A stretch of DNA of 44,779 bases from Thiomargarita sp. (lineage in GTDB: Bacteria > Pseudomonadota > Gammaproteobacteria > Beggiatoales > Beggiatoaceae), in contig DYNN01000014.1 of assembly GCA_020721045.1 (NCBI GenBank), positions 1 through 44,779 on the forward strand, given 5' to 3'. The notes beneath the pieces are model-generated. The model saw nothing but the letters and a program-made list of their open reading frames with translations, had not been told where the DNA came from and did no database searches. Position 1 is the first letter of the stretch. Every line of letters begins with the position of its first letter. The translations under genes were made by a program, and so were the position numbers. Below, one piece after another: positions 3,122-7,603 of this stretch.

Positions 3122-3142
3122 GCGCATAATATTTATCCTAAG
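3122..3142. repeat. 21-bp direct repeat, copy 1
   Basis: This is a perfect 21-base copy of the segment at 3649-3669, which spans the start codon and leader of lprI. This copy lies 13 bp past the methyltransferase stub and is followed at once by the palindromic element at 3145. The two copies bracket that element plus the whole lprI gene, as would happen if a short duplication accompanied insertion or rearrangement. Confidence 0.85.
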
Positions 3143-3144
3143 CT

Positions 3145-3231
3145 CGTAGGGTGTATAAGCGAAGCGTCATACACCGATTTTTGGAACTCTCACGCTTTTT
3201 GGTGCATGACGCTGCGCTTATGCACCCTACG
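3145..3231. repeat. Palindromic dispersed repeat (31-bp arms)
   Basis: The left arm 3145-3175 begins CGTAGGGTGTATAAGCG. The right arm 3201-3231 is its reverse complement with 28 of 31 positions matching; the loop is 25 bp. A related single arm appears at 44553-44580. This is a REP/MITE-like family. Lying just after the stop of lprI on the minus strand, and after the methyltransferase stub on the plus strand, it could fold as a terminator for either. Confidence 0.85.
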
Positions 3232-3234
3232 ATC

Positions 3235-3654
3235 TCAATTTGGTTGCTCAATTCCAAAGCCAAGTTCTAATAATTCAATCAGTTGCTTGGTTCTTTGGCG
3301 GGTTAATGTTACCATCAGTGAAGAAACGAGAGTAGGATACATACTCCCATATTCCACATAAGGATCACCGCCATTGGCAACTGGAAAATGTGCTTCAATT
3401 TCGGCATCTCTAAATTTAATCCAAGCTTGTTGTGCTTTTTTCAATTTTTCTAAAAATACAGTTTCATCTGCATATTTTTTCTGTAACTTCTTGTAAGTTC
3501 TGTTTAATTTGGCATCTTCTGCATCATACTCTTTGCCGGCACAAATACCAATATCCATTTGAGTCATTGCTTTATCCATACAGTCATCACCAGCAAATGA
3601 CGGATAACTCATTGTTGATAAACTAAAAACTAAACTACTAATTAAAAGGCGCAT
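3235..3654 (-). CDS. LprI-family (DUF1311) secreted protein
   Basis: This 139-residue protein has a clear Sec signal peptide (about 1-21, ending SYPSFA) and then the LprI fold: cysteines in DDCMDKAMTQMDIGICAGK, the KLNRTYKKL repeat-like helix, and the hallmark AQQAWIKFRDAEIEA. LprI proteins are periplasmic or lipoprotein-type inhibitors of host lysozyme in mycobacteria; in proteobacteria the role is mostly unknown. No lipobox is visible here. The start ATG (3652-3654) lies 22 bp after the stop of the transporter gene, so it is probably the last gene of that operon. Its start region is duplicated at 3122-3142. The family call is good; lysozyme inhibition is family knowledge only. Confidence 0.8.
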   Translation of the reverse strand: MRLLISSLVFSLSTMSYPSFAGDDCMDKAMTQMDIGICAGKEYDAEDAKLNRTYKKLQKKYADETVFLEKLKKAQQAWIKFRDAEIEAHFPVANGGDPYVEYGSMYPTLVSSLMVTLTRQRTKQLIELLELGFGIEQPN

Positions 3655-3669
3655 AATATTTATCCTAAG
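3649..3669. repeat. 21-bp direct repeat, copy 2 (covers lprI start)
   Basis: Read on the minus strand, these bases hold an AGGA-type ribosome binding site and the ATG of lprI. They are identical to 3122-3142. The other copy is not followed by an lprI-like reading frame. Confidence 0.85.
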
Positions 3670-3676
3670 TTGTACG

Positions 3677-6550
3677 TTAATAATAGACTTTAGAATGATG
3701 TGTTGTAGTTTCTATCAGTAATTCACGGACATTGCGATTTGCTTTACCCAGTCTTAGTCGCCCAATCTTTTCATATTGTATGTAGTGTAAACAAGCTCGC
3801 AACATATCGTGATTTAAAGCCAATAAATGCGATTCATAATTGCCTTCGTTAATTTCTAGTGGGCGATGAAACAATATGAAGTAAATGCGATTAACACCTT
3901 GAATATCATTGACACGTTCATCAAAATATTTTAATACTTGTCCTGCAAGATATTTTTCCCCTGCATTTGATAACACTTCTAATGCATTACCTTGATTTGC
4001 ACGACTGGGTGATAGCAGTCCACGACTTACTCGTTGAAAAAATTCTAAATTTTGTTCAGCTATATAAGTAATTACCGTTAATACATTTAATAGGTGATTT
4101 TCAGCGACTTCTTGTAAAATTTTGGCAATCAAATCTCGGGTTTTAGTATTTAAATGTTTTCCTTGATGTATCTTCAGTAACCCATTAATTTGCACAAATT
4201 TTCTTAATGCAATCCGCGCCATTTTTTGCAATCGTTCGCGTTGTTCATCGGTTAGTTTTAAGTAGATCAATGAAAGTATTTCAAAACGTTCTTGAACTGA
4301 TCCGGTTTCTGAGAAAACACATTTAATTAATGATGGTTTGCAACTATTTAAATTTAAACGCAATAATTCTTTACTTTCATTAACTAAAGTGCGATCTCGT
4401 GAACCTAGCAAGTGAATAACAGGTGACCAATCTTCCAATGGATGACATTCTTTTAATGCACGCAATGCGGTAATTTTGACTTCTTTAACTGGTAGTGAAA
4501 GTGCTTCAGTTAATTTTTCTCTATGTGGTTCTAATTGTCCGCTTAACATACGTACGTAAGCGGTAAATGCAGCACCACGTACTTCTAAAGTGCCTGTATC
4601 TAAGAAGGGTAATGCGATATCGCTGTAATTAGGTTGACGTAATTCTCCTAATGCATAAAGGTATAATGCTGTGTATTGATTATTTACTTTAGTGGCTTGA
4701 CCTAGGCGTTCTAAAATTTTCTTTTCAATAGCCGGTTTTGCTTTATATAAGGGGTGCCCATGTAGGCATAAACAGGCTTCAATAAAGACTTCTGGTGAGG
4801 GATGTGCTAATAATTTTTCAATTTCTCGATTGAGATTAATGGTTTTGAATGAGGCTAAATTCTTTAAAATTAAGGGTAAAACTTTGGGATCATTTTTAAC
4901 GCGCAAGGCTTCGACTAAGTACGTAATATTGCTATTTGATAAGGGTAGGGAAGCAAGCGTATTAATGCAACTGGATTGAATTTGCAACACATCTGATTTT
5001 AATAATAAATTACCTACTTGGTTGACAAAATGATTGAGCCGCAATACTCGAATCATTTCTAACGCAGCCACAACATGATAGGGATCGCTACTGGCTAATT
5101 TTTCTTCAATAACACGTTTGAGACTATTTCCCTTATTGGTTAAACCGATATCGCTGTGACGATTAAACAATTCTCGATTGAGTAAGCCAAATACGCCTTC
5201 GTTGTAAGCTGCCCACTGTGGTAAAGCGATACCTATGCCTAATATAGAAACGACAACGGCAATGAGCGGTAAGACGTAACTAATGGGTAAAGAAAGAATT
5301 TCGGTGGCAGTTGTATCTTTGACAATATCTCCGCCTAAAATGATGAGTATTGTACCCGCTATGATGGTAGAAAAAGGAAAAACAATGCCATTTAAAAATG
5401 CTTTATTTGTCCCCCATTGATTAGGTGGAATAGCGTTAAAAAGCAGATTATTTACTGGTGTACGCCAAGCACCGCGCATTTCTTGATTAATAAAATGGGT
5501 AAAAATGCCTAAACCTAGCATAATTCCCATGCTATCTCTGATTTGTCCAGCCGAGTTCCAATAGAAGTAGGTAAATAAGCTGAGTGCTGCAATCATGGTC
5601 AAAATAGGATGTAATAAATTGCTAGCACCTACGCCAATTTTTAAAATAATGCGTGAAGTTAGAAATAATTGAATCAGTAACCAAGCAAGATTTGCAAAAA
5701 TTTCATAGGTTGCAAAAAATGTCGTTCTATTCACCGGATCAGGATAAACAACAGGATAAATAATGACTTGGTACTGATATTCTAATAATTTATTGCCAAT
5801 GACAAATACCATTAAACCCAATGACATAAAAATCATTAAACGCGAGCCAATAATATATTTAAAGGCGCCAATCAGTTCTCGAATCGGTGTTTTATTGCTC
5901 TTGGTTTCACCATGTCCAACGCGAACAGGTGTCAAGCGATTTTTGATCAATCCCAACATACCAAACGCACCAAGACATGCGATTCCTAGTACAAGAATGA
6001 GACGTTGTGGTTCTAAACCAACTAAATTAATCAGCACTACTAATACTGTACCACCCAGCGCGCCGCCAATAGGAATGCCAGTATTAATGACACCAGTGAC
6101 ACGTTTTACTTGCACAGCGGTAAAATAAGAGGCGACAACACTACCTGCATGAATGAAAATGAGGATGTAAAAAAAAGAGAAGCCAACAAAGAAAAATCCA
6201 TAAATCCAATAATATTGGATGCCCAAATAGGCGTTGAAAAAAAATAGTCCTTGCGCAACAATAGAAAATACAGTTGTTGCTAATAAAAAAAATCCTAAGA
6301 TATTAAGACCACTCACTTTTTTAGTGTAATGGGCATAAATCATTGAACCAACCATGACTGCCAAATCAATCAAAATCAGGATGATAGGTAGGTTATCACC
6401 GCCTAAATTTTCGATTAATAAGGTAATACCAATGCTACGCGCAAAACTTGCACCAAACGAGAAAATTAAGAATACTAAGAAGAAATATAAAACACCTTCC
6501 CATTCATTGGCTTTGATGGCGAGTAGATTACCAAGAAAACGTGCTATCAT
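3677..6550 (-). CDS. ATP/ADP-translocase-like MFS transporter with C-terminal HEAT repeats
   Basis: Residues about 1-455 form roughly 11-12 membrane segments resembling the NTT/TlcA nucleotide transporter branch of the MFS, beginning ARFLGNLLAIKANEWEGVLY. The cytoplasmic C-terminal half (about 470-955) is a run of helical pairs typical of HEAT-like repeats, for example DPYHVVAALEMIRVLRL and LTEALSLPVKEVKITALRAL. Classical nucleotide translocases of intracellular bacteria lack this tail; MFS-HEAT proteins of free-living bacteria have unknown substrates. I chose ATG 6550 over the upstream GTG at 6556, since neither has a strong binding site. The gene starts a few bases after the CNBD gene stop, implying translational coupling and joint function. 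Substrate assignment to nucleotides is not warranted. Confidence 0.8.
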   Translation of the reverse strand: MIARFLGNLLAIKANEWEGVLYFFLVFLIFSFGASFARSIGITLLIENLGGDNLPIILILIDLAVMVGSMIYAHYTKKVSGLNILGFFLLATTVFSIVAQGLFFFNAYLGIQYYWIYGFFFVGFSFFYILIFIHAGSVVASYFTAVQVKRVTGVINTGIPIGGALGGTVLVVLINLVGLEPQRLILVLGIACLGAFGMLGLIKNRLTPVRVGHGETKSNKTPIRELIGAFKYIIGSRLMIFMSLGLMVFVIGNKLLEYQYQVIIYPVVYPDPVNRTTFFATYEIFANLAWLLIQLFLTSRIILKIGVGASNLLHPILTMIAALSLFTYFYWNSAGQIRDSMGIMLGLGIFTHFINQEMRGAWRTPVNNLLFNAIPPNQWGTNKAFLNGIVFPFSTIIAGTILIILGGDIVKDTTATEILSLPISYVLPLIAVVVSILGIGIALPQWAAYNEGVFGLLNRELFNRHSDIGLTNKGNSLKRVIEEKLASSDPYHVVAALEMIRVLRLNHFVNQVGNLLLKSDVLQIQSSCINTLASLPLSNSNITYLVEALRVKNDPKVLPLILKNLASFKTINLNREIEKLLAHPSPEVFIEACLCLHGHPLYKAKPAIEKKILERLGQATKVNNQYTALYLYALGELRQPNYSDIALPFLDTGTLEVRGAAFTAYVRMLSGQLEPHREKLTEALSLPVKEVKITALRALKECHPLEDWSPVIHLLGSRDRTLVNESKELLRLNLNSCKPSLIKCVFSETGSVQERFEILSLIYLKLTDEQRERLQKMARIALRKFVQINGLLKIHQGKHLNTKTRDLIAKILQEVAENHLLNVLTVITYIAEQNLEFFQRVSRGLLSPSRANQGNALEVLSNAGEKYLAGQVLKYFDERVNDIQGVNRIYFILFHRPLEINEGNYESHLLALNHDMLRACLHYIQYEKIGRLRLGKANRNVRELLIETTTHHSKVYY

Positions 6551-6558
6551 TTTCACGA

Positions 6559-6990
6559 TTATTTGTTACTGCTGATCATGCCACGCATGCGGCTAATCAA
6601 AACTTTAATAAATCCAAATGCAATTGCAGGATATTCGTGGGCTAATTGTTCCATATCATTACGCTCGATGACCAAGAAAGTGCAAGGTCCGTCACACACA
6701 GCTGTGGCAGTACGTGTTTCAGCATCAAATAGAGAAAGCTCACCCAAAAAATCATTTTCTTTCAAGGTAACGAGATGTTTTTCAATCCCACCTTGATTTT
6801 TGAGGATCATTACTTTACCTGATACCACGATGAACAATTTATCGCCAATATTCCCTTCATGAAACAGCGTATGTCCATCTTCATAAGCTTCTTCAGTGGC
6901 AATTGTCGATATCATGTGGATATCCTCAGTTTTCAGTGCAAAAAAAAGAGGAACTTTATTTAGAACAATGATTTTCTCTAGTGGGATCAT
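6559..6990 (-). CDS. Stand-alone cyclic-nucleotide-binding domain protein
   Basis: The 143 residues are essentially one CNBD (Crp/PKA-regulatory type): beta-roll EDGHTLFHEGNIGDKLFIVVSGKV (25-60) and a phosphate-binding cassette FLGELSLFDAETRTATA (81-97) with G83, E84, R93 and A95 in the positions used to hold cAMP or cGMP. There is no helix-turn-helix, so it is not a Crp-type regulator. It begins an operon whose second gene starts within 10 bp, the MFS-HEAT transporter. In related organisms I recall similar domains fused to such transporters, which would support a regulatory-subunit role, but that is memory, not shown here. The upstream region holds about 600 bp without genes. Confidence 0.85.
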   Translation of the reverse strand: MIPLEKIIVLNKVPLFFALKTEDIHMISTIATEEAYEDGHTLFHEGNIGDKLFIVVSGKVMILKNQGGIEKHLVTLKENDFLGELSLFDAETRTATAVCDGPCTFLVIERNDMEQLAHEYPAIAFGFIKVLISRMRGMISSNK

Positions 6991-7603
6991 CGCTAAAGTA
7001 ATAATTTCATAAAGAATCTGATGAATTTTATATTGATTAAGCCAATTCTACAACGAAAGACAGCGACAGCGAGTTTATTTTACGTGTTTTTTTAATATTC
7101 TCATAGCAATGTTTTAGGACTTACGCATTGACAAATAAAAACAATTTTTAATCAATGATTTACTCGATAACATCATGTGCATTTTGTGTTGAGAAAATGA
7201 TTTTAACTTTTTGATTTTTCAGTATATGATTTTGTCAATGCGTAAGTCCTATGTTTCATGAAATCAATTAAATTCACACGCACCATTAATAATGTTTATA
7301 GATTTTCAAGATGTGCAAATTTATGACCACTTTACTAAAATAAATACCATAAACATTTACATTCGTTCGTTTAAAGTAGATAATAGTGTGTACACAAAAC
7401 TTAAATATTAATAAAAGTCATCTTATTATCAAGATTGCTTAAAGTAAAGTCTGTGATATTTACAGTAACTTATTTTCTTAATAAAAGTTTTACGCATTAG
7501 TATAAACAATATCCTGAATTTTTGTAAGATGAGATAAACGATAAAATTAGGATGATGACAGGTCGTTAATTTTTTACTGACTGACATTAAATTCAATAAG
7601 TTT
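6991..7603. other. 613-bp intergenic region between divergent genes
   Basis: There are no coding regions I can support. It separates the minus-strand CNBD operon from the plus-strand TonB gene and so must hold both promoters, but it is so AT-rich that no single -35/-10 pair stands out. A 137-bp MITE occupies 7115-7251. A short inverted pair around TAATGTTTAT and ATAAACATTT lies near 7290-7360. Confidence 0.6.
7115..7251. mobile_element. Miniature inverted-repeat element (MITE), 137 bp
   Basis: The ends are perfect 21-bp inverted repeats: 7115-7135 begins TAGGACTTACGCATTG and 7231-7251 is its reverse complement. The inside is about 95 bp of AT-rich, non-coding sequence. Outside the GGAC...GTCC core both ends have TA, the target used by IS630/Tc1-type elements. 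ATGTTT at 7109-7114 and 7251-7256 is an alternative 6-bp target duplication. There is no transposase in the window, so any mobilisation would be in trans. Confidence 0.85.

What the first reader, a model, noticed from the sequence alone, without database searches (positions are those of the whole stretch)
3235..6990. Candidate second-messenger-gated transporter: CNBD + NTT-like MFS with HEAT tail + LprI
A one-domain cyclic-nucleotide sensor with an intact phosphate-binding cassette is translationally coupled to an MFS protein of the ATP/ADP translocase type that carries a ~500-residue HEAT scaffold. A secreted LprI-family protein ends the operon. HEAT arrays bind proteins, so the CNBD could dock on the tail and gate transport. 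I know of no described system with this set.
Basis: partly seen in the sequence, partly recalled or inferred. Interest (0 to 1): 0.65.

Follow-up and report, generated by a model that had tools for sequence, protein, structure and literature searches.

The report
cNMP sensor paired with NTT-HEAT transporter
This is the Beggiatoa-family version of an already described but never tested pair: a membrane transporter of the ATP/ADP-translocase family with a long protein-binding tail, inherited together with a small cyclic-nucleotide sensor that probably switches it, while the third gene (LprI) is a chance neighbour.

Summary
The three ORFs are real and as described. The two-gene core is conserved: the sensor (CNBD) ortholog occurs in 35 of 36 Beggiatoaceae genomes that carry the MFS-HEAT gene and in none of the 6 that lack it. 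It lies directly upstream in 32 of the 35 and elsewhere in the genome in 3. The MFS part belongs to the NTT (ATP/ADP translocase) family, shown by profile, tree and fold: the best structural matches are AtNTT1 and Chlamydia NTT1, Z 17.9-19.5. LprI is not part of the system; it is next to this gene in no other genome examined. The claim that no such set is described is wrong: Major, Embley and Williams 2017 (PMC5381601) reported NTT-HEAT proteins with an adjacent or fused CNBD and proposed that cAMP tunes transport. What differs here is the gene order (CNBD first), a divergent branch that Pfam's TLC model misses, and replacement of three of the four charged residues needed for ATP/ADP exchange, so the substrate may not be ATP/ADP. 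Gating is the best explanation but is inferred; my complex model was too poor to test an interface.

The parts
6559..6990 (-). Stand-alone cyclic-nucleotide-binding domain protein, 143 aa, no DNA-binding domain; intact phosphate-binding cassette (residues 82-98)
   Evidence: PF00027 E=3.7e-21; PDB phmmer hits to cGMP/cAMP kinases and CRP-like proteins; conserved across Beggiatoaceae
3677..6556 (-). NTT-HEAT membrane protein, 959 aa from GTG 6556; probable true start ATG 6550 by homology
5189..6511 (-). 12-helix NTT-type MFS domain (about residues 16-456)
   Evidence: AF2 helices (low confidence in this domain); top fold matches 9j3m, 9j3l, 9j3n; profile hit to 9j3n E=3e-5
3737..5146 (-). HEAT-repeat tail (about residues 471-940)
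   Evidence: AF2 pLDDT about 75-90 for most of it; fold matches to alphaRep and armadillo/HEAT proteins
3947..4006 (-). Most conserved HEAT segment, residues 851-870 SRANQGNALEVLSNAGEKYL; candidate docking site (inferred)
   Evidence: second most conserved 20-residue window of the whole protein; recognisable in other NTT-HEAT families
3235..3654 (-). LprI-domain secreted protein; neighbour, not part of the system
   Evidence: PF07007 E=3.7e-25; never adjacent in relatives

Best explanation
The CNBD and the NTT-HEAT protein are the two parts of one cyclic-nucleotide-responsive inner-membrane transporter. A second messenger (cAMP or cGMP) binds the soluble CNBD, which docks on the cytoplasmic HEAT tail of the carrier and changes its transport rate. 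Shown here: the domains, the NTT kinship, the HEAT tail, the intact ligand cassette, strict co-inheritance and usual adjacency, natural fusions of a CNBD to the HEAT end in relatives, and many nucleotide cyclases in the genome. Inferred: ligand binding, docking on HEAT, gating and its direction, and transport itself. The substrate is probably an anionic, nucleotide-like metabolite, but not necessarily ATP/ADP. LprI is not involved.
For: CNBD ortholog (E<=1e-58) in 35 of 36 genomes with the MFS-HEAT gene and 0 of 6 without it; adjacent upstream in 32, and kept although unlinked in three (G004, G009, G026), which simple operon hitch-hiking does not explain. Outside the family, ten gammaproteobacterial NTT-HEAT genes have a CNBD gene directly downstream and two carry it fused after the HEAT repeats; a distant second copy in one Beggiatoaceae genome is also fused, a Rosetta-stone argument. 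NTT membership: profile-profile P=100%, E=2.5e-49 against other NTT-HEATs; P=97%, E=3.5e-11 against canonical NTTs; HMM hit to 9j3n E=3e-5; fold Z 17.9-19.5 to AtNTT1/CpNTT1; tree groups it with NTT-HEATs at 97/87. CNBD cassette conserved. 13 class III cyclase domains in the genome. Several charged and polar residues within the MFS domain are invariant, as expected of a working carrier.
Against: No binding, interface or transport data. The AF2 model of CNBD plus MFS-HEAT had MFS pLDDT mostly below 50 and gave no usable interface. The apparent CNBD-HEAT co-evolution vanished when three divergent sequences were dropped. G272 has a close NTT-HEAT relative with no CNBD neighbour and no close CNBD ortholog. 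In two genomes (G017, G031) the cassette Arg is His although both genes persist. The CNBD tree does not show that the upstream and downstream CNBDs are the same lineage.
Confidence: 0.6

Rival explanations
1. The NTT-HEAT protein is not a working carrier but a membrane receptor or scaffold: the MFS part senses or anchors, and HEAT plus CNBD integrate signals for other proteins.
For: Three of the four charged residues required for ATP/ADP exchange are replaced; a tail of about 470 residues; the most conserved tail segment is more conserved than most of the membrane part.
Against: Several charged and polar residues inside the MFS domain are invariant, including Glu259, the equivalent of AtNTT1 Glu385; the MFS part evolves more slowly than the HEAT part.
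Confidence: 0.2
2. A canonical ATP/ADP (or NTP) exchanger that merely carries a regulatory tail.
For: NTT fold and family.
Against: Equivalents of Lys155, Glu245 and Lys527 of AtNTT1 are Leu60, Ser127 (mostly Phe in relatives) and a hydrophobic residue near Ile398; only Glu385 (Glu259) is kept. Mutating Lys155 or Lys527 abolishes or strongly weakens ADP or ATP binding in AtNTT1 (PMC3306366). The Pfam TLC model does not hit.
Confidence: 0.12
3. The three genes, LprI included, form one envelope operon.
For: 22-nt gap, same strand.
Against: LprI is next to the MFS-HEAT gene in none of 28 other Beggiatoaceae loci; LprI homologs in 19 other genomes of the family lie elsewhere.
Confidence: 0.03
4. 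The CNBD regulates something other than the transporter, and the pairing reflects shared regulation only.
For: No interface shown; G272 lacks the CNBD.
Against: Co-retention when unlinked and HEAT-CNBD fusions (PMC5381601).
Confidence: 0.05

Closest known systems
NTT-HEAT plus adjacent or fused cNBD proteins (Major, Embley and Williams 2017, PMC5381601)
   Same: NTT-type MFS domain fused to HEAT repeats, with a cyclic-nucleotide-binding partner encoded next door; the same regulatory hypothesis was already proposed there
   Different: CNBD gene lies upstream instead of downstream or fused; occasionally unlinked; divergent branch not detected by PF03219
Canonical NTT ATP/ADP translocases (AtNTT1, Chlamydia pneumoniae NTT1; 9j3j-9j3o)
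   Same: Fold and distant sequence kinship (Z 17.9-19.5; HMM E=3e-5)
   Different: No HEAT tail or CNBD in those; three of four key charged residues replaced here
PKA/PKG/CRP-type cyclic-nucleotide-binding domains (PF00027)
   Same: Fold family and intact phosphate-binding cassette; Thr after the Arg, as in PKG-type sites
   Different: Stand-alone 143-aa protein with no kinase, channel or DNA-binding part
LprI lysozyme-inhibitor family (PF07007)
   Same: Third ORF is a family member
   Different: Not conserved with the pair; unrelated to the system

Membership tests
NTT-HEAT family (PMC5381601) | NTT-type MFS domain followed by a HEAT-repeat domain | tested here: met
   Profile-profile P=100%, E=2.5e-49 over 868 columns to other NTT-HEATs; tree 97/87; fold
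NTT-HEAT family (PMC5381601) | CNBD encoded next to or fused to it (in some members) | tested here: met
   Adjacent upstream in 32 of 35 family genomes; downstream or fused in other Gammaproteobacteria
NTT-HEAT family (PMC5381601) | CNBD follows the NTT-HEAT gene (feature of the published examples, not of the family as such) | tested here: not met
   CNBD precedes it in Beggiatoaceae; the paper treats CNBD placement as labile, so this makes it a variant rather than a non-member
Canonical NTT (PF03219) | Score over the Pfam TLC cut-off | tested here: not met
   No hit at E<=1 and none in the genome (the control genomes of that search gave none either, but the model works in other genomes)
Canonical NTT (PF03219) | Lys155, Glu245, Glu385, Lys527 of AtNTT1 | tested here: not met
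   Only Glu385 (Glu259) retained by profile alignment; AtNTT1 positions located by me from numbering offsets; low identity, so alignment error is possible
Canonical NTT (PF03219) | NTT fold | tested here: met
   Top three matches AtNTT1 and CpNTT1, Z 17.9-19.5, 354-371 residues aligned; model confidence in this domain low
Cyclic-nucleotide-binding domain (PF00027) | Over curated cut-off, with phosphate-binding Glu and Arg | tested here: met
   75 bits against 27.5; Glu84 26/26, Arg93 24/26
Cyclic-nucleotide-binding domain (PF00027) | Binds cAMP or cGMP | not testable with these tools
   Needs a binding assay
LprI (PF07007) | Over curated cut-off | tested here: met
   88.8 bits against 22; secretion judged only by eye from the N-terminus

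The most novel reading that the evidence does not exclude
In Beggiatoaceae the CNBD and NTT-HEAT proteins form an obligate two-subunit, second-messenger-gated MFS carrier whose substrate is not ATP/ADP: a directly cyclic-nucleotide-switched secondary transporter.
Probability: 0.3. Interest if true: 0.65.

Novelty: new variant of a known kind. Interest (0 to 1): 0.38.

Why it matters
NTT-HEAT proteins, with or without a cNBD, are widespread, including in cyanobacteria, Chlamydiae and oomycetes, yet none had been functionally characterised when they were described (PMC5381601). The Beggiatoaceae pair keeps regulator and carrier as two separate proteins that can be purified and mutated independently, which makes the gating hypothesis of 2017 directly testable, and it shows that the pairing is kept even when the genes are unlinked.

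Tried and rejected
AF2 of a natural-frame read-through of CNBD plus MFS-HEAT (L032, 1057 aa, 7 rows): MFS pLDDT mostly below 50, no interface information. Mirror-tree test for CNBD-HEAT co-evolution: partial r=0.42, p=0.009 in the full set, but it does not survive removal of three divergent rows (r=0.29, p=0.057, while CNBD-MFS becomes 0.54), so it is rejected as evidence. CNBD tree to show that upstream and downstream CNBDs are one lineage: unresolved; with an HMM built from Beggiatoaceae rows only, some unrelated CNBDs (L115, L119, 86-88 bits) score as high as the downstream partners, so relocation versus separate recruitment is open. The stronger scores came from an HMM that contained two of the downstream sequences and are not used for this. 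LprI as a partner: rejected by synteny. Paper searches found no later functional study of NTT-HEAT proteins; the library is partial.

Full report
Observation. The three minus-strand ORFs are at the stated places. The first is a 143-aa stand-alone CNBD (PF00027, 3.7e-21), the second a 959-aa membrane protein with a HEAT tail, the third an LprI-domain protein (PF07007, 3.7e-25). Homologs of the second protein start at the position of the ATG at 6550, so the gap after the CNBD stop is probably 8 nt, not 2.

Where it comes from. The window is contig C80 of a 3.39-Mb draft genome. The named records with the closest copies of the gene are Candidatus Albibeggiatoa and Thiomargarita, which are the same contigs as two members of the window's own family; I take the family to be Beggiatoaceae.

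Conservation of the pair. The MFS-HEAT gene was found in 36 of 42 family genomes, counting a HEAT-only remnant in G013. An orthologous CNBD (E<=1e-58, well separated from all other CNBDs, whose best is 1.8e-28) was found in 35 of 42, all of which have the MFS-HEAT gene. The six genomes without MFS-HEAT (G001, G006, G029, G036, G037, G038) have no such CNBD; some of these are incomplete assemblies. From the coordinates, the CNBD lies directly upstream on the same strand in 32 and is unlinked in G004, G009 (53 kb away) and G026. Fisher p=1.3e-6, without phylogenetic correction. No other gene is as consistently present: a bPH_2-domain gene lies divergently downstream in 11 genomes, and LprI is adjacent only in the window.

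Outside the family. In 369 genomes drawn from the class, 13 NTT-HEAT genes outside the family were examined. Ten have a CNBD gene immediately downstream, two (L123, L124) have it fused after the HEAT repeats, and one (L114, genome G272), the closest to Beggiatoaceae, has none and no close ortholog elsewhere. A second, distant copy in G021 (L059) is a 1236-aa fusion with two CNBDs.

What the membrane part is. It does not hit Pfam TLC, but a profile from 28 relatives matches other NTT-HEATs at P=100%, E=2.5e-49, canonical NTTs at P=97%, E=3.5e-11 and the solved Chlamydia NTT1 (9j3n) at E=3e-5. A maximum-likelihood tree places it with NTT-HEATs (97/87) and apart from canonical NTTs. An AF2 model (mean pLDDT 66, better in HEAT than in MFS) has AtNTT1 and CpNTT1 as its three best structural matches, Z 19.5, 18.6 and 17.9, against 17.1 for the next entry, another MFS carrier. 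That lead over other MFS proteins is modest, so the family call rests on sequence and fold together.

Substrate. Four charged residues of AtNTT1 (Lys155, Glu245, Glu385, Lys527) are described as conserved and crucial in ATP-transporting NTTs (PMC10654386; PMC3306366). By two alignments (Lys527 only) I find Leu60, Ser127 (Phe in most relatives), Glu259 and a hydrophobic residue. Only Glu385 is kept, and it is invariant. An ATP/ADP exchanger is therefore unlikely, though such distant alignments can be off by a few residues.

Signal. The CNBD cassette keeps Gly, Glu and Arg in nearly all relatives; two sister genomes have His for Arg. Thr after the Arg is typical of PKG-like, cGMP-preferring sites (my own knowledge), so cGMP is as plausible as cAMP. 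The genome holds 13 class III cyclase domains and 7 CNBDs. The CNBD is the most conserved part of the pair (mean distance 0.33, against 0.61 for MFS and 0.80 for HEAT).

Mechanism. Best reading: cNMP binding to the CNBD changes its grip on the HEAT tail and thereby the carrier. The fusion point at the HEAT C-terminus and the very conserved segment 851-870 suggest where it docks; this is inference. My attempt to model the complex failed, and the co-evolution signal was not robust.

Known or new. Major, Embley and Williams 2017 described the NTT-HEAT family, the adjacent or fused cNBD, and the idea that cAMP adjusts uptake, with no function tested. New here: family-wide co-inheritance in Beggiatoaceae, CNBD-first gene order, retention when unlinked, and loss of most ATP/ADP signature residues. 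I cannot tell whether the 2017 dataset already held Beggiatoa sequences; it included 45 gammaproteobacterial ones.

Noticed in passing
window 7115-7251: 137-bp MITE-like element with 21-bp terminal inverted repeats TAGGACTTACGCATTGACAAA just upstream of the CNBD gene; 8 sites of the repeat in the genome at up to 2 mismatches, none for the reversed control pattern.
   Followed up: partly
window 3141-3235: 35-nt imperfect inverted repeat (89% complementary) right after LprI.
   Followed up: no
L032 (JAPYOW010000095.1, 4674 bases): Contig labelled Methylococcaceae carries a CNBD/NTT-HEAT pair whose MFS part nests inside Beggiatoaceae (100/99 with G009); misbinned contig or recent transfer.
   Followed up: partly
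L059:5262-8972: Second, distant NTT-HEAT in G021 with two CNBDs fused at the C-terminus, in a genome that also has the two-gene form.
   Followed up: partly
L035:5729-6373 and 10 other loci: bPH_2-domain membrane protein encoded divergently just downstream of MFS-HEAT in 11 Beggiatoaceae genomes; possible further partner.
   Followed up: partly
L057:4268-4690 and L058:7021-7443: CNBDs in which the cassette arginine is His (SPHITSA), suggesting loss or change of ligand binding while the pair persists.
   Followed up: partly
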